A DNA stretch of 64,000 nucleotides from Xenorhabdus mauleonii (GTDB lineage: Bacteria > Pseudomonadota > Gammaproteobacteria > Enterobacterales > Enterobacteriaceae). The notes beneath the pieces were generated by a model. That model did not search any database, had not been told where the DNA came from, and saw nothing but the letters and a program-made list of their open reading frames with translations. Below, piece by piece: positions 1 to 6,689 of this stretch (within the stretch, counting starts at the first letter, position 1; each line of letters starts with the position of its first letter). The stretch spans positions 248,001-312,000 of the forward strand of contig NZ_FORG01000004.1 of NCBI RefSeq assembly GCF_900113945.1. Direction: 5' to 3'. A program made the position numbers and the translations under genes.

Positions 1-3000
1 TAAGTACTTTTTTATCTAAACAAATCGTTGTTCCGGGTGCCCCAGTTCCCTTTGGAAAAATATTGTCGAGGCGATGATATACAGCTCCTGCATGAGGCTG
101 CGTAATAGTGACAGGAGTAATTGTTTTGGTCTGAACTTCAAAAGATACCTGTGCACTTGAAGTTAAATCACCGTTGATTCGTTGATCAGCAGAAATGATG
201 TACTTCCCTTCTACAGGTTGATAAGGCCCACAAGACCATTTACCTGTAGATGTATCAACAGTAGTTTGGCAGTTTGGTCTGTTTGCAAAATCCTCAATAT
301 AGACTTGGGCGCCTTTTTCCCCCGTCCCTGAAATCATAAACGGCAGTTTCGTTATTTTTGCACCATGCACAGGATTAGTGATTTGTATTTTTTCCCTAGA
401 AACCAGATAATTACGCCTGATTTGCGATGTCCTTTCATAAACACCACTGAATATCTCCGATTCTTTTTTGTGATATTTATATTGAGCCGCATAAAGAGAG
501 AATTCTCCCTCATCTTTTGCTGTTATTACCGGGTTACCGGGACAAGCCCATTTCCCTTGGTTATCCACAGTTGCTGTACAGATAATCCCATCAGAGGGAA
601 TCAATGAGAATTGTTCTGTCGGTAGAAAATATTGAGAGCTTGCAACAAGAATAAGCTGCTTGGGGCTTCCTTGGCCTTGAATACTAATCTCATCCTTTAC
701 CTGATATTGCGCTCCTGCGGCTGGAGACATGATCCGTATCGGTACCTTGAATTTCCACGTAATAGGAACGCCGATTGAATTCTTATTATCGGTTTCCTGC
801 AATGCCAGTGTATAGGTATCCCCACCTAAAATATCACCAAGGTTCTCACCCAGAGGCAACGCCAATTCCCAAAAGAAACCACCTCCTACGTCCAGAGGGA
901 CATTAAGAAGTGAACTAATGATATTCCAAAAACCCCCTGCCAGACTGCTGATAAATCCCCCGAACCCTCCACCACCACCGCCACCGCCACCACCACCACC
1001 ACCACCACTACCACTACCACCGGGGCCACTCAAGGTTCCAAAAAAATTAATAGGATTATCTGGATCTACTTCCGAATTATTTTCAGGGCTATGAATTTCA
1101 AATTTTTTTTGCTCGGGTTCATCATCACTTTTATCTTTGACAGTGAAATAATGAGTATCTGTGGCAATGATTTTCCCATCTTTTAATAATTCAGCGGTCA
1201 AGGCATAAGTGCCCGGAGAAAAAATCAGGGGTTTTCCACAATCCCAATTACCATTGTCACTGACCACAGCACCCGAGCAAATAATGGTTTCATTATTCAA
1301 ATTTTTATTATTTTTATTTAACTCCGGTAGCTCATCTATTTTTTTCTTTTTAACATCAATATTGCCAGGCTCATTAGCACTTCCTGATATATTTACTGGC
1401 GTACCTTCTGCCACTATTTCGCCTTGAGCTGGCCTCTTCAGTTTACCTACAGGATCGCCATTAATTTCAAAATAAAACCTACCAGGAGTTTTTCCTTCAT
1501 TATAAGGTGTTTTCCTAAGGTCAGTCCAACCCAATAGATGTTTCATATCATTTGCTTCAATATAATATATTCCCTCTTCCAAACTTTTAGGAAGTGATAT
1601 AACCCACTTTGGAAAAGACATTAACTCTTTAAACTCACCATATGTTATTTTTAATTCCTTAGAATAAATGCCCGCATTTCCATCTTCAGATAAATCAACC
1701 TTATAATAATTGGAATTCTTATCTTCATAATCGCACTTAAGATTATCTTCGGGAAAATGCGGCCCATCCTTTTTCATGCATATATAATATTCTGAAGGAT
1801 AAAGAATAGTATTGTTCGGTGCAATATATAGCTTTTCATCACCACCATATCCTTCTAGCTCTATCTTTTCTTCTAACTGACTCTTATTAAATTTTTTTAA
1901 ATCAATAGCAGAGCTATTTTCCAAAAATTTTGGTATGTAATATACTCCCGTAAAATTCCCCTCAGAAAACAATATTGAATCAAGCGGATCGATATCATTA
2001 TTTTTTCGAATTGAAAAAACCCTATACTTATACACTGTATTTATATTGAATTCTTCTTTAGGCGAATTTTCAATAACATAATGTTTAAAATAACCTCCAT
2101 GATAAAAGTTATTTCCTTTGCAGTCATAATCATCAGCAGCAGACAAACAAAAAAAATCAAAGACATCATCTACGTCGATCTTAATACTCAGCTTTTTGCT
2201 ATATTTACTATCCTTATCCAGAACCATTGTTACATTATCATATTCCTTTTTTTTATAAGATAAATTAACTTCATCCATAGTATCTTCACGATCTGTCACT
2301 TGAACTGCTGTTATTGTATAATCCCATCTTCCTTCTTCATTACTATTTTCAGTAAAACTTTTATTAGAGTCTATAGTACATGACCATAAGCCATAGCTCT
2401 TTGTTTTAATTAAATTATCACCATCATGCAATTCTTCACATAACTCATTTTGTGAAATGACTTTACCACTTACATTAGATTTTAACGCAATATTAATTAT
2501 TGAACCAGGATCAGCGTACCCACGCAATTTAATTTTTTTACTCGATACTATCGTATTATTTGTCGGATAAACGATAGCAAATTCGTTTGCATAAGTAGGA
2601 ATAATTGCTTCCACACTGTCTTCTTCCCATGCCTTATATGGTTTACTTCTCTCTCGAGCTGTAATTTTCACAATTTGATCTTCTGATGTTTCAAATTTAT
2701 CGGGCACAATTTCTGCACGTGGAATAGAACATTCCCATTTCCCATTTTCATCTGATTTGCCACATAAAAGTGAACCAGATTTATTTTGACCAACAACATC
2801 ATAATAAATCTCTATTTCACTCAGTGGCTTCCCCCATCCTCTAATAAAAATACTTTCACCGCGTTTTGTTAAATGAGTATGCCAATCAGGGTTTTCAATC
2901 CAAATTTTTTTCATGCTTTCAGAAAACCACTGACCAATAGGGATGATAAACTCGTTGCTAGAAGGAAAATCAATAAAACGGTTATTATGTTTCTCGGTTA

Positions 3001-3799
3001 AATCAGAAAAGAACGCCGGATTATTCTGATATTCATTAATTGCATAATCTTTGTCTGGTACAGGATATCCCCAGGAGGCCACACCAATAATAGTATCTTT
3101 CCAAATAGCAGGGCCACCTGAATCTCCGCGTTGTATTACCCCAAAATTCCGATAGTCTGCCGTATCTGCTTGTAGCATTAACCCTGGACCGTCCTTATTA
3201 TCAAGAGATAAAGAAATAACTTTCATACCAGCTCGATATTGTTCGTATTTCTTAGACGGTATTTCTTTACCCGTCTCCTTATCATAACCTTCATCACCAT
3301 AGCCATAAACAAGAGCATGATAATACTTTTCGAATTTTTTTTCATACGCTGCATCATATTCAAAAAATCGACGAACACGGCCAAATTTTTCTATCTTTTT
3401 TATTTCTTCTTCTACAGCAGATTCCAATCTTATCAATGCAATGTCTAGATTTTCGTTATATATATATAAATTTTTATTTGATGATTTACCAATTGGTACA
3501 TCTTCATAATTAGAAATTTCATATTCTTCAGATTTATCTTTATTTACACAATGAGAAGCGGTTAATAAATAATATTGTGAAATAAGGGAAGCTGTGCAAT
3601 CAAAAGTTTTATTAGTTTCTATATCCGTTATTTTAAGTCTAACAACCCAAAGTTGACATCTCCCATCACCTCTCGAACAAGTAAACCCCTCTCCTCCGGC
3701 AATATTTTCTAAAGGTGGATACTCAATTTTATCATTAGAAAATGAATAACCACACAAAAAGAGAAACGATATCATTATAATTATCTTAATCTTGTTCAT
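1..3799 (-). CDS. Secreted trypsin-family (S1) serine protease with Ig-like modules, partial
   Basis: An uninterrupted minus-strand frame starts at an ATG at 3799, preceded by a GGGGGTG ribosome binding site, and stays open to position 2, so at least 1266 residues are encoded and the C-terminus lies outside the window. The first 20 or so residues look like a Sec signal peptide. The S1 triad is visible: His83 in LLTASHC, Asp119 in DIALIRL and Ser227 in GDSGGP, followed by the family's GVASWG segment. After about residue 280 come repeated Ig-like or beta-sandwich modules carrying the motif (D/N)xGxW, then a 14-glycine tract encoded near 968-1009 and a hydrophobic Gly-rich segment, then further modules. 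The predicted role is an exported endopeptidase with a long adhesive or substrate-binding tail. It lies 28 nt downstream of the 755-residue Ig-repeat gene, so the two probably form an operon. The substrate is unknown. Confidence 0.85.
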   Translation of the reverse strand, partial: MNKIKIIIMISFLFLCGYSFSNDKIEYPPLENIAGGEGFTCSRGDGRCQLWVVRLKITDIETNKTFDCTASLISQYYLLTASHCVNKDKSEEYEISNYEDVPIGKSSNKNLYIYNENLDIALIRLESAVEEEIKKIEKFGRVRRFFEYDAAYEKKFEKYYHALVYGYGDEGYDKETGKEIPSKKYEQYRAGMKVISLSLDNKDGPGLMLQADTADYRNFGVIQRGDSGGPAIWKDTIIGVASWGYPVPDKDYAINEYQNNPAFFSDLTEKHNNRFIDFPSSNEFIIPIGQWFSESMKKIWIENPDWHTHLTKRGESIFIRGWGKPLSEIEIYYDVVGQNKSGSLLCGKSDENGKWECSIPRAEIVPDKFETSEDQIVKITARERSKPYKAWEEDSVEAIIPTYANEFAIVYPTNNTIVSSKKIKLRGYADPGSIINIALKSNVSGKVISQNELCEELHDGDNLIKTKSYGLWSCTIDSNKSFTENSNEEGRWDYTITAVQVTDREDTMDEVNLSYKKKEYDNVTMVLDKDSKYSKKLSIKIDVDDVFDFFCLSAADDYDCKGNNFYHGGYFKHYVIENSPKEEFNINTVYKYRVFSIRKNNDIDPLDSILFSEGNFTGVYYIPKFLENSSAIDLKKFNKSQLEEKIELEGYGGDEKLYIAPNNTILYPSEYYICMKKDGPHFPEDNLKCDYEDKNSNYYKVDLSEDGNAGIYSKELKITYGEFKELMSFPKWVISLPKSLEEGIYYIEANDMKHLLGWTDLRKTPYNEGKTPGRFYFEINGDPVGKLKRPAQGEIVAEGTPVNISGSANEPGNIDVKKKKIDELPELNKNNKNLNNETIICSGAVVSDNGNWDCGKPLIFSPGTYALTAELLKDGKIIATDTHYFTVKDKSDDEPEQKKFEIHSPENNSEVDPDNPINFFGTLSGPGGSGSGGGGGGGGGGGGGGFGGFISSLAGGFWNIISSLLNVPLDVGGGFFWELALPLGENLGDILGGDTYTLALQETDNKNSIGVPITWKFKVPIRIMSPAAGAQYQVKDEISIQGQGSPKQLILVASSQYFLPTEQFSLIPSDGIICTATVDNQGKWACPGNPVITAKDEGEFSLYAAQYKYHKKESEIFSGVYERTSQIRRNYLVSREKIQITNPVHGAKITKLPFMISGTGEKGAQVYIEDFANRPNCQTTVDTSTGKWSCGPYQPVEGKYIISADQRINGDLTSSAQVSFEVQTKTITPVTITQPHAGAVYHRLDNIFPKGTGAPGTTICLDKKVL
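968..1022 (-). repeat. Glycine-codon microsatellite in the protease gene
   Basis: A run of ACC/GCC triplets on the plus strand encodes 14 consecutive glycines, then Ser-Gly-Ser-Gly-Gly-Pro-Gly on the N-terminal side. It separates an Ig-like module from a hydrophobic Gly-rich stretch. Trinucleotide runs of this sort can change length by slippage without breaking the frame, so the linker may vary between strains. Confidence 0.8.
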
Positions 3800-3827
3800 A
3801 ACACCCCCTAATATGTAGTTTTTATTC

Positions 3828-6095
3828 TTACTCAGCACATTTCATTCCATTTTTATCTCCCGTGCATTTTATTGTTTTTTCATCACTTCTTTGATAAATA
3901 TCATTGTCAACGCTTTCTTTGAAAGTAAAAATATAACTTCCTTCTTGAGCATAAAATTTCCTGCTTAATTTCCAATTTCCGTCCTCATCTGTATCTACAT
4001 CTCCTACTTTTATATCGTTCACTGATATACTTACTTTCGGTAAAAATTCCTGAGATTTAACACGTGGCAGAGATGTCCCCTGAAAATAAGTAAAGTCATT
4101 TTTATTTTCAGACGTTACAGAAAAAATTTTAGAACTTAATATCTCCATGCCACTTATGTAGTTCCCATCCTTATGATGGCTGAGCGAAATATCTATGAAT
4201 CCTGTTGGAGCATTTTTAAATGTCGTCTTCCAATTTCCATTAACCTCATCTGTAGGAGGTAAAATAATTCCGCCTGTAGGTATAACTTGGCCTGTCTTTA
4301 TATCTAACTTAACATAAATAGGATTAGACGGAGCAGTACCCTCGATTTCAATATCTTGTGTATTATCAGTTGTTGAGGAAATTATATTATTATTGCCAGG
4401 TTTAGATATTTTAAGGCAAGGAAGTACACTATAATTAACGACTTGGCTTCCGGATAAATTAGAAGTCGCTGTATATTTAATGGAACAGACAGCCTCTACC
4501 CCGCTCAAACTCCATGTTCCTGTATCAAGATCAACAGTAGGTGTATAGTTTGTTTTCGGTGAATAAATGGAGCCATCCGGATTATAACCGGTGATACTGA
4601 TTAGCATATTTTTTGCATCATTAATTGTGACACTATTAAATCTACCGGATAAATCATATTTACCCGAAGAAATCACCTCACCATTCGCCATATTATCAAT
4701 AAATAAACTACATGCTGGGCCTTTAATCGTTACACTTGAATTTTTTACGTCTTTAATGCTGATCGTTGCTGCATCTAAACCGCAATTTATCCAAAGACTA
4801 AGAACTCCCCACCCATCCGAGCCTATCAACTTGGTTTGGTATACGTTATCATCAAAATCAGTGATTAGAATAGGCAATGAGCCATCGCTCATAAGATTTT
4901 TTCCATTCACAGTAATATTATTTTGAACAGCTGTTCCAGATGTTGGATCGGTGATTTGAGGTTTAGGGGGGCATGGTAACGCGCTATAATTAACTGTTGG
5001 GCTTCCAGTTAAATTAGCTGTAGCTGTATATTTGATGGAACAAATAGCATCCAAACCATCTAAACTCCATGTTCCTTTATCAAGATCAACAGTAGGTGTA
5101 TAGTTTGTTTTCGGTGAATAAATGGAGCCATCTGGATTATAACCGGTGATACTGATGACCGGGGGCTGTATATTGTCAGGTATGTCATTATCGAAATTAA
5201 CTGTGCCAAATAAATTATATTTACCTGGAGGAATTACTTGCCCATCTTGTATTGAAGTCATAAATACACCACATGTTGCTCCCGAGATATTTACAGGTGA
5301 GCTACCTGTTTCAACGATAGATACATTTGCATATTCGTTACAAGGCATCCATACTTTCCCACTCCAATATTCCCTACCTTCTTCTGTAGAACTGGCTTTA
5401 TACTCCGTCTCAGATACATCAACATAAAGGTTCGGTAAATATATGTCGTCCACCAACCCCTTTCCTTCAAAGATGACAAAATTCTTTAGAGCCTGATAAT
5501 TGTCAGCAGGAGAAGTAATTTTTGGTTCGTCCCCTGAATTGCGGATCGTTATATTTATTTTCATTTCATCTTCAGCATAAACGCCAAACGTACCTAAACA
5601 ATTTTCTCCATTACAAGTAGCTGTAATATCAAATGGGCAATCATTAGACAAAACTTGAACATGCGTCCGCCATTCCGTATGATACGCATCTGAATAAAGA
5701 AAGGTTTCTACTCCAAAATCACATGAGTCAGAATTAGACCTAGGTGGAGATATTCTCCATATTACAAATTTTTGCCCATCATAACATCCTCCAAAAAAAT
5801 TATTGCTATCTTCAAGCCTATCAGGCTTTTCCTCATTTGCTTTTACAGTAAAGTTACTACCACCCGTACCATACATACACTGATGCTTGAATACCTTAAT
5901 TTCTAATGGATCATAATAATTACCATTAAAGAAAACCATATTATAATATGCAGAAAAAATATTTCTGGGATGATTGTTTTTTTCTTCATTATAGATATTG
6001 TCTGAAATAATTTTGTTTTCTATTAACTCAATCGCATTAGCATTAAAAACAAAAAATAATATAATAAAAAAGATAGCGTTCAGGATTATTTTCAT
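3828..6095 (-). CDS. Secreted protein of repeated Ig-like modules, partner of the protease
   Basis: This frame encodes 755 residues. I chose the ATG at 6095 because GAGGGG lies about 8 nt upstream and a clean signal peptide (MKIILNAIFFIILFFVFNANA) follows; an upstream in-frame start at 6110 would add five residues. No enzyme motif is recognised. The body holds two related units of about 185 residues, each ending in ISITGYNPDGSIYSPKTNYT and a Cys-containing strand, then further modules with the motif (D/N)xGxW. The two copies of the ISITGYNPDG block are 95 bp with only two mismatches, which indicates recent duplication or conversion. Paired cysteines suggest disulfides in the periplasm or outside the cell. 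The same module type occurs in the downstream protease, 28 nt away, so a shared complex, substrate or inhibitor role is plausible but unproven. Confidence 0.85.
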   Translation of the reverse strand: MKIILNAIFFIILFFVFNANAIELIENKIISDNIYNEEKNNHPRNIFSAYYNMVFFNGNYYDPLEIKVFKHQCMYGTGGSNFTVKANEEKPDRLEDSNNFFGGCYDGQKFVIWRISPPRSNSDSCDFGVETFLYSDAYHTEWRTHVQVLSNDCPFDITATCNGENCLGTFGVYAEDEMKINITIRNSGDEPKITSPADNYQALKNFVIFEGKGLVDDIYLPNLYVDVSETEYKASSTEEGREYWSGKVWMPCNEYANVSIVETGSSPVNISGATCGVFMTSIQDGQVIPPGKYNLFGTVNFDNDIPDNIQPPVISITGYNPDGSIYSPKTNYTPTVDLDKGTWSLDGLDAICSIKYTATANLTGSPTVNYSALPCPPKPQITDPTSGTAVQNNITVNGKNLMSDGSLPILITDFDDNVYQTKLIGSDGWGVLSLWINCGLDAATISIKDVKNSSVTIKGPACSLFIDNMANGEVISSGKYDLSGRFNSVTINDAKNMLISITGYNPDGSIYSPKTNYTPTVDLDTGTWSLSGVEAVCSIKYTATSNLSGSQVVNYSVLPCLKISKPGNNNIISSTTDNTQDIEIEGTAPSNPIYVKLDIKTGQVIPTGGIILPPTDEVNGNWKTTFKNAPTGFIDISLSHHKDGNYISGMEILSSKIFSVTSENKNDFTYFQGTSLPRVKSQEFLPKVSISVNDIKVGDVDTDEDGNWKLSRKFYAQEGSYIFTFKESVDNDIYQRSDEKTIKCTGDKNGMKCAE
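4507..4601 (-). repeat. Internal repeat copy 2 of the Ig-repeat gene
   Basis: This 95-bp block matches 5062-5156 with two mismatches at an offset of 555 bp (185 codons). It encodes the ISITGYNPDGSIY segment. Flanking sequence in the two units is much less alike, so the core has been homogenised. Confidence 0.9.
5062..5156 (-). repeat. Internal repeat copy 1 of the Ig-repeat gene
   Basis: Partner of the block at 4507-4601, in the same reading frame. Near-identity inside otherwise divergent modules fits gene conversion or recent duplication. Confidence 0.9.
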
Positions 6096-6411: not shown

Positions 6412-6446
6412 TTGACAGGCGAATACCGATCTAGTTTACTAGTACG
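6412..6446 (+). promoter_or_regulatory. trp promoter and TrpR operator
   Basis: TTGACA at 6412-6417 and TTTACT at 6435-6440 are 17 nt apart. The near-palindrome TCTAGTTTACTAGT at 6430-6443 overlaps the -10 element exactly as the E. coli TrpR operator does. Tryptophan-bound TrpR is therefore expected to block initiation here. Confidence 0.9.
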
Positions 6447-6505: not shown

Positions 6506-6586
6506 ATGATCGTATTTATGCAAGCTACGCAAATCGGCCGTTGGTGGCATAACTTCCCATTCAGGGTAGTTGGCTCACGCACATAA
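6506..6586 (+). CDS. trpL: trp operon leader peptide
   Basis: This 26-residue frame starts at ATG 6506, with GAGG at 6493-6496 as ribosome binding site, and ends at TAA 6584-6586. It contains tandem Trp codons at 6542-6547 (residues 13-14), the sensor of charged tRNA-Trp in attenuation. It is longer than the 14-residue E. coli leader, with 12 residues following the Trp pair. It sits between the TrpR-controlled promoter and the attenuator hairpin, as expected for trpL. The peptide itself has no other role in the known mechanism. Confidence 0.88.
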   Translation: MIVFMQATQIGRWWHNFPFRVVGSRT

Positions 6587-6607
6587 ATACACATGCAAAA
6601 GTGCCGA

Positions 6608-6634
6608 AACCCGCCCTAAGAAGCGGGTTTTTTT
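6608..6634 (+). terminator. trp attenuator
   Basis: A stem AACCCGC / GCGGG(TT) at 6608-6614 and 6623-6629 closes an 8-nt loop and runs into a T-tract (6628-6634). Its position, 22 nt after the leader stop codon and before trpE, identifies it as the intrinsic attenuator. Confidence 0.92.
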
Positions 6635-6689
6635 ATCACGGTTTTTATCATTTCAGTTTTTGTGGATGCAGATAGCACGGGGTATAAAT

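What the first reader, a model, noticed from the sequence alone, without database searches (positions are those of the whole stretch)
1..6095. Secreted trypsin-like protease encoded beside an Ig-repeat protein with the same module type
An S1 protease with intact His83, Asp119 and Ser227 is followed by more than 900 residues of Ig-like modules; the gene 28 nt upstream encodes only modules and a signal peptide. Both share the (D/N)xGxW motif. S1A proteases are uncommon in enterobacteria, and this pair could be an exported protease with a scaffold, substrate or inhibitor. I recognise no described system.
Basis: partly seen in the sequence, partly recalled or inferred. Interest (0 to 1): 0.72.

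Follow-up and report, generated by a model that had tools for sequence, protein, structure and literature searches.

The report
Secreted protease with Ig-repeat partner protein
Half of the Xenorhabdus (insect-killing bacteria) genomes examined carry two neighbouring genes, one for a large enzyme that looks exported and cuts proteins and one for a repeat-built partner, and parts of both have been exchanged between species, which may point to a changing target that we do not yet know.

Summary
The window is from a Xenorhabdus genome. The protease gene runs off the window; complete, it encodes 1709 aa: signal peptide, short propeptide, S1A domain with intact triad, long Ig-like tail. The partner (755 aa) has a signal peptide, a Cys-rich N-domain without Pfam match ("ND") and Ig-like repeats. 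The pair is in 15 of 30 genus genomes, with the partner at 17 of 17 protease loci, often between trpH and trpE. It is no trypsin by specificity: residue 189 is V/I, never Asp (13 of 13). New: (1) ND also occurs alone, beside a second, distant S1 protease, fused to metzincin-like proteins, and beside a pertussis-S1-like gene; (2) the pair is a mosaic: S1 region and ND come from diverged donors independently (AU tests), while the middle of the tail, with a conserved Gly-rich hydrophobic segment, is kept. Most likely a secreted or surface-held zymogen protease with a co-secreted targeting partner. Nearest known kind: VesB of Vibrio cholerae, which differs in tested features. Target, export route and structure are unknown.

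The parts
1..3799 (-). S1A protease gene, residues 1-1266 of 1709 (rest lies outside the window: whole gene G000:C56:246670-251799)
3737..3799 (-). signal peptide of the protease (residues 1-21, by eye)
   Evidence: sequence; no signal-peptide program was available
3704..3736 (-). short propeptide (residues 22-32) ending at the zymogen site N|IAGG
   Evidence: I-x-G-G in 13 of 13 rows, residue before it N, T, A or D
3014..3703 (-). S1A catalytic domain (residues 33-262), His83, Asp119, Ser227
   Evidence: Pfam; invariant triad
1280..2902 (-). variable Ig-like region (about residues 300-840), diverges or is exchanged together with S1
1..1279 (-). conserved middle of the tail, residues 841-1266 (continues to about 1500 outside the window)
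   Evidence: mean pairwise identity 59-83% in windows from 841 to about 1500, 13 rows
845..1030 (-). Gly-rich then hydrophobic segment (about residues 924-985) inside an Ig-like module
   Evidence: present in 13 of 13 full-length orthologues; hydropathy modest
3828..6095 (-). partner gene, 755 aa, ND + Ig-like repeats
6033..6095 (-). signal peptide of the partner (residues 1-21, by eye)
   Evidence: A21 invariant in 16 of 16 rows
5556..5966 (-). ND domain of the partner (about residues 44-180); Cys73, Cys104, Cys161 invariant and Cys125 nearly so in 26 ND rows
3831..5528 (-). Ig-like repeat units of the partner; the unit at about 190-378 is an extra copy that most aligned relatives lack
   Evidence: alignment
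6428..6445 (+). TrpR-operator-like site of the divergent trp operon (not part of the pair)
   Evidence: 1 match with 3 mismatches, 0 in 100 shuffles; the consensus is recalled
6536..6636 (+). Trp operon leader (RF00513), flank of the slot
   Evidence: 48 bits, gathering score 41

Best explanation
A two-gene secreted weapon or digestive complex of Xenorhabdus. Both proteins are exported by Sec. The larger one is a zymogen: removal of about 11 residues would free the Ile that completes an S1A active site, whose pocket is not made for Lys/Arg. The enzyme is carried on a long Ig-like stalk whose conserved middle holds a Gly-rich hydrophobic segment that may sit in or on a membrane. The partner forms a complex with the protease and its ND domain recognises the target (an insect or competitor molecule) and brings it to the protease; this would be why S1 and ND are exchanged between species and the tip diverges fast. 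Shown: architecture, triad, linkage, mosaic exchange, ND beside or fused to other probable enzymes in some genomes. Inferred: export, activation, complex, membrane contact, target recognition.
For: Protease and partner occur together at 17 of 17 loci of 15 genomes. Triad invariant, 15 of 15 rows. dN/dS at most 0.57 in each of four domains in 7 of 7 species pairs tested. ND is fused to metzincin-like proteins, 2 of 5 of which keep HExxHxxGxxH (Pfam M10 0.0036 and 0.00034, both under cut-off), and lies beside a Pertussis_S1-like gene in one genome (Pfam 3e-14). Exchange: G012/G006 ND dS 2.1 against trpH 0.30; G007/G010 1.9 against 0.16; G025/G002 S1 dS 0.94 against 0.18; AU tests reject the opposite groupings (p 6.5e-10, 2.6e-49, 1.2e-4, 3.0e-4). 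S1 and ND distances are little coupled (partial r 0.26 given trpH, -0.31 given the tail).
Against: Most ND genes seen stand alone; their neighbours were judged by eye only. Of 11 S1/Trypsin_2 loci of the genus that are neither this type nor HtrA-like, only 2 (one lineage) have ND directly beside, 1 has it 1.2 kb away, 8 have none in the stretch fetched. No T2SS secretin over cut-off in the own genome (the best hit is HofQ), so passage of the outer membrane is unexplained; both proteins could stay periplasmic. The hydrophobic segment reaches only 1.2-1.7 on the Kyte-Doolittle scale, weak for a membrane helix. The pair is absent from 15 of 30 genus genomes and only broken in one more, G019. Partner Ig part and S1 are correlated after trpH (0.78), but not in every pair (G008/G007), and linkage alone may give it. 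Recombination with diverged donors need not mean an arms race.
Confidence: 0.42

Rival explanations
1. The partner is a chaperone, inhibitor or immunity protein that keeps the protease silent inside the cell envelope.
For: Encoded just upstream, also with a signal peptide, at 17 of 17 loci; distances of partner Ig part and S1 are correlated after trpH is accounted for (r 0.78, 0 of 5000 permutations), which linkage alone may also give.
Against: ND is exchanged independently of S1; ND stands alone in genomes without the protease and occurs beside or fused to unrelated probable enzymes. In G008/G007 the S1 region differs (39-77%) while the partner Ig part is 76-93% alike.
Confidence: 0.2
2. A VesB-like surface protease of ordinary nutrient or processing function, held to the outer membrane; the partner is an unrelated surface protein.
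For: Same parts as VesB: signal peptide, propeptide, S1A, Ig-like, Gly-rich hydrophobic segment (VesB: PMC12369372, passages; Gly-rich nature of GlyGly-CTERM: PMC6219818, start of abstract in the listing).
Against: The Gly-rich segment is internal, not C-terminal, and no GlyGly-CTERM family was reported; no T2SS secretin over cut-off in the own genome; pocket not trypsin-like; a constant partner gene and mosaic exchange are not features of VesB as far as I recall.
Confidence: 0.2
3. Adhesin-like, contact-dependent system between bacteria in which the protease is the variable effector.
For: Mosaic of a conserved middle and variable ends, loosely as in polymorphic toxins (PMC3482391, start of abstract in the listing).
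Against: Variable effector is at the N-terminus, no separate small immunity gene seen between partner, protease and trpH, no autotransporter match.
Confidence: 0.1
4. Two secreted genes that merely hitch-hike next to each other in a recombination hot spot beside trp.
For: Patchy presence (at least 6 changes on the trpH tree); lower G+C (35-37% against 44-46% of the flanks).
Against: Pairing is kept at other places too: beside trpA in G005 (L029), and with other upstream neighbours in L036 (G003), L039 (G019) and L040 (G005); and an S1 protein with an ND+Ig protein recurs in a second diverged pair.
Confidence: 0.08

Closest known systems
VesB (also VesA, VesC), Vibrio cholerae secreted serine proteases
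   Same: Signal peptide, propeptide (zymogen), S1A domain, Ig-like domain behind it, Gly-rich hydrophobic segment (VesB from passages of PMC12369372)
   Different: One Ig domain against about 1400 residues of tail; Gly-rich segment internal, not a C-terminal GlyGly-CTERM; no T2SS secretin over cut-off in the own genome; residue 189 not Asp; constant partner gene
Bacterial Ig-like repeat adhesins (Big_6, Big_13; Ca_tandemer NF033510)
   Same: Tail matches Big_13 just over and Big_6 just under cut-off; NF033510 E 6.5e-8, 32.9 bits, below its cut-off 50
   Different: N-terminal protease, no autotransporter or other anchor family found by Pfam, interior hydrophobic segment
Metzincin-like and pertussis-S1-like secreted proteins of Xenorhabdus that go with ND
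   Same: Share the ND domain in cis (halves in swapped order in 5 of 5) or as a neighbour
   Different: Unrelated enzyme folds; only described here, nothing tested

Membership tests
S1A (chymotrypsin-fold) serine protease | Catalytic His, Asp, Ser in family motifs | tested here: met
   Pfam Trypsin 64.7 bits, cut-off 20.6; H83, D119, S227 in 15 of 15 rows
S1A (chymotrypsin-fold) serine protease | Zymogen with Ile/Val-x-Gly-Gly N-terminus and Asp194 | tested here: met
   I-x-G-G and GDSGG in 13 of 13 rows; activation itself not tested
Trypsin proper | Asp at position 189 and Lys/Arg before the activation site | tested here: not met
   The position six before Ser227 (189 by counting, no structure) is V or I in 13 of 13 rows; the residue before I33 is N, T, A or D
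VesB-type protease | C-terminal GlyGly-CTERM | tested here: not met
   No such match in NCBIfam (that the library holds such a model is recalled); C-termini end without hydrophobic segment by eye, 13 rows
VesB-type protease | Export by type II secretion | tested here: inconclusive
   No GspD over cut-off in the own genome, best hit is HofQ; other components not searched, other genomes not searched; X. bovienii is reported to have a T2SS (PMC4630870, passages)
Autotransporter protease (SPATE and kin) | C-terminal barrel | tested here: not met
   No such Pfam match in the 1709-aa protein at E <= 0.1
Polymorphic toxin system | Variable C-terminal toxin with immunity gene | tested here: not met
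   Protease is N-terminal; no separate immunity gene between partner, protease and trpH
Bacterial Ig-like (Big) repeat protein | Several Big domains over Pfam cut-off | tested here: inconclusive
   Big_13 27.5 against 27; Big_6 27.4 against 27.6; no single stretch passes
AB-type (binding + enzyme) two-protein system | Physical complex, receptor binding by one part | not testable with these tools
   Structure prediction switched off

The most novel reading that the evidence does not exclude
ND is a new, exchangeable target-recognition domain of entomopathogenic bacteria, used in trans or in cis by unrelated secreted enzymes (two S1 protease types, a metzincin, an ADP-ribosyltransferase-like protein), and the trp-slot pair is a two-protein, membrane-contacting protease machine whose enzyme end and ND are exchanged independently to follow changing insect targets.
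Probability: 0.3. Interest if true: 0.75.

Novelty: new variant of a known kind. Interest (0 to 1): 0.55.

Why it matters
If right, it gives a defined locus by which insect-killing symbionts direct a protease of unusual predicted specificity at a target, and a domain family (ND) by which further secreted enzymes and their targets could be found. The mosaic pattern points to the parts that change, and makes the question 'what is cut and what is bound' directly testable.

Tried and rejected
Other trypsin-family genes of the own genome: two neighbouring genes on C42, by eye DegP/DegS-like (HtrA), unrelated in architecture. In the genus-wide list I set aside the tandem hits with frames of about 355-507 aa as the same HtrA pair, by frame length and place only. 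Viral origin: 28 candidate stretches in viral contigs, 0 confirmed. Plasmids: tblastn with two ND sequences, no match. ND profile against solved structures: two related sequences at E 0.03 and 0.044 (Tako8), taken as chance. Partner profile against solved structures: one hit at E 1. ND or partner outside the genus: 0 genomes outside Xenorhabdus among 394 of the order (profile A1, E <= 1e-5) and among 369 of the class (profile A5, E <= 1e-3); 3 of 392 of the family, all of one other, unnamed genus. There ND lies about 0.46 and 0.55 kb (2 genomes) or 2.8 kb (1 genome, with other frames between and a shorter ND) from a Trypsin_2-like gene that is under the Pfam cut-off in 3 of 3; I do not count this as a firm third pair. 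Eight further S1/Trypsin_2 loci of the genus had no ND in the stretch fetched (0 of 8), against the idea that every S1 gene goes with ND; one more (L126, G003) has an ND gene 1.2 kb away on the other strand with a gene between. The TrpR-like site and the Trp leader belong to trpE; I saw no sign that they control the pair.
Full report
What is there. The window lies in contig C56 of a 5.1-Mb genome; its named relatives are Xenorhabdus (13 loci in 12 species). It encodes 1709 residues. Pfam gives Trypsin (E 1.4e-17, residues 51-250) and weak bacterial Ig-like matches in the tail. The partner encodes 755 residues. The other two trypsin-family hits of this genome are HtrA-type genes by eye. Species names for G handles below rest on equal contig lengths.

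Anatomy of the protease. Residues 1-21 look like a signal peptide and 22-32 like a propeptide, followed by I33-x-G-G. In 13 of 13 full-length orthologues the residue before this Ile is N, T, A or D, never K or R, and the position six before the catalytic Ser (189 in chymotrypsin numbering, assigned by counting) is V or I, never Asp. So the fold is that of trypsin, the specificity is not, and the activation site does not ask for a trypsin. His83, Asp119 and Ser227 are invariant in 15 of 15 aligned rows. Behind the S1 domain come about 1400 residues, in large part Ig-like modules of about 90-120 residues (boundaries set by eye). One module (residues 901-1021) holds a run of glycines followed by a hydrophobic stretch; this is present in 13 of 13 orthologues. 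Its hydropathy is modest: the highest 19-residue mean of the protein lies there in 12 of 13 (values 1.24-1.72) and elsewhere in G008. Membrane contact is a guess.

Anatomy of the partner. Behind the signal peptide lies a domain of about 135 residues with conserved cysteines and tryptophans, here called ND, then Ig-like repeats. The number of repeat units differs: the window protein and those of G005, G007 and G010 have extra units. ND has no convincing Pfam or NCBIfam match in the proteins scanned (one ND of the other genus has an Ig_TgrO1 match at E 0.00098, under cut-off).

Distribution. The protease is found in 15 of 60 relatives, the own genome counted, all in the genus: 15 of 30 genus genomes. 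These gave 17 loci, each with the partner directly upstream (17 of 17; two partners are cut by contig ends). Of the 17 proteases, 13 are open over more than 1650 residues, 2 are cut by contig ends and 2 are split. In 10 of the 17 loci the pair lies between trpH and trpE with both seen, in 2 beside trpH with the other side off the contig, in 1 (G005) beside trpA, in 4 elsewhere or on a short contig. Census at the trpH end: the slot holds the protease tail in 13 of 30 genomes, decayed pieces in 1 (G019), and trpE instead in 16, G005 among them. On a trpH tree of 29 genomes presence needs at least 6 changes; the labels are more clustered than chance (8 and 4 of 500 shuffles as low; many branches are weak). 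Presence is therefore partly inherited and partly gained or lost.

Outside the genus the protease profile finds only S1A-like proteins in 12 of 393 other genomes of the order at E <= 1e-10 (4.5e-15 to 7.6e-11), 9 of the 12 over about the first 130 residues only.

ND is a family of its own. The partner profile gives matches at E <= 0.001 in 27 of 30 genus genomes, including 12 without the pair; many of the extra matches are stand-alone frames of about 160-200 residues, some broken. I looked at ND neighbourhoods in 19, 20 and 5 stretches, by eye apart from the Pfam scans named. Most ND genes stand alone. Informative cases: (a) L104 and L105, one lineage: an S1 protein of 767-778 residues (Pfam Trypsin 1.7e-9 and 6e-10) directly followed by ND + Ig (+ RCC1 in L105), gene order reversed against the window; the S1 domains are distant from the window's (22% identity, E about 0.01) and the Ig part of L105 is nearer to the tail of the window protease (E about 4e-7) than to the window partner. 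These S1 proteins show no clear signal peptide by eye. (b) L109 and L157: metzincin-like proteins with HExxHxxGxxH and a C-terminal ND whose two halves are in swapped order; three more (two in L112, one in L114) have the same order but no HExxH. Pfam M10 matches are under cut-off. (c) L109 again: an ND protein beside a Pertussis_S1-like gene (3e-14). (d) another genus: ND near a Trypsin_2-like gene, under Pfam cut-off in 3 of 3. (e) L126: S1 gene and ND 1.2 kb apart, on opposite strands. Against a general rule: 8 other S1/Trypsin_2 loci have no ND in the stretch fetched.

Mosaic evolution. Along the protease, mean pairwise identity of 13 orthologues is 30-63% in 40-residue windows up to residue 840, 59-83% from 841 to about 1500, and 32-48% in the last 190 residues. 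Pairs of near species show sharp steps: G025/G002 47-74% in S1 against 86-95% beyond residue 900; G012/G006 92-98% in S1 but 29-60% in ND; G002/G011 (trpH 99%) 36-57% in the last three modules. Synonymous distances agree: ND 2.1 against trpH 0.30 (G012/G006), 1.86 against 0.16 (G007/G010); S1 0.94 against 0.18 (G025/G002) and 1.05 against 0.17 (G008/G007). AU tests: residues 33-800 reject {G007, G008, G010} (6.5e-10), the middle rejects {G008, G025, G018} (2.6e-49), ND rejects {G007, G010} (1.2e-4), {G007, G008, G010} (1.7e-4) and {G012, G006} (3.0e-4); the middle also rejects {G012, G006} at 0.027, so it is not free of exchange itself. I chose these groups after seeing the trees, so the p-values are too small, but the log-likelihood differences are 24 to 280. 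Hence segments come from diverged donors, and ND and S1 are exchanged separately. Distances of S1 and of the partner Ig part are correlated after trpH is accounted for (0.78), those of S1 and ND little (0.26, 174 of 5000 permutations as high) and not after the tail is accounted for (-0.31). In the 7 pairs tested dN/dS is 0.13-0.57 in the four domains, against 0.04-0.18 for trpH: purifying on average, but loose.

How it may work. The best reading: a co-exported pair; the protease is activated outside the cytoplasm, stands on a long stalk that may touch a membrane, and is brought to its target by the partner, whose ND is the variable reader. The exchange pattern argues against ND as a dedicated inhibitor of its own S1 domain. 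What is missing: the route through the outer membrane (no GspD over cut-off in the own genome; though a T2SS is reported for X. bovienii, PMC4630870, passages, and listed for XB but not XN in PMC6023292, passages), the target, and any structure.

Comparison. VesB of V. [quoted passage not shown] The window protease resembles it in its parts but fails the GlyGly-CTERM and trypsin-specificity tests. The one protease gene named for X. bovienii in the passages I saw is prtA (PMC4630870). I found no paper on this pair (searches, in an open-access library; listings only for most papers).

Noticed in passing
L004 3-473 (G000:C56:235003-235473): C-terminal part of an Evf virulence factor (Pfam PF18270, 2.8e-77), cut by the stretch, about 11 kb from the pair.
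   Followed up: no
L109 7144-7944 and 7899-8681 (unnamed Xenorhabdus genome G017): ND protein directly followed by a Pertussis_S1-like (ADP-ribosyltransferase) gene. Described only.
   Followed up: partly
   Followed up: no
L221 5067-6515 and L222 3045-4493: Trypsin-family protein (31.5 bits) between a metallo-beta-lactamase-like protein (by eye) and a 723-aa protein, the same three-gene block in two genomes; might be a defence system.
   Followed up: no
L105 4711-7599: ND + Ig protein that ends in RCC1 repeats (Pfam 8.2e-39), unusual in bacteria as far as I recall.
   Followed up: no
L107 6166-7881: Three ND genes in tandem.
   Followed up: no
L154 4688-7407, L155 4952-7515, L156 6974-11601: In another, unnamed genus an ND gene lies 0.46-2.8 kb downstream of a Trypsin_2-like gene on the same strand (matches under cut-off).
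   Followed up: partly
window 6428-6445 and 6536-6636: TrpR-operator-like site and Trp leader before trpE.
   Followed up: yes
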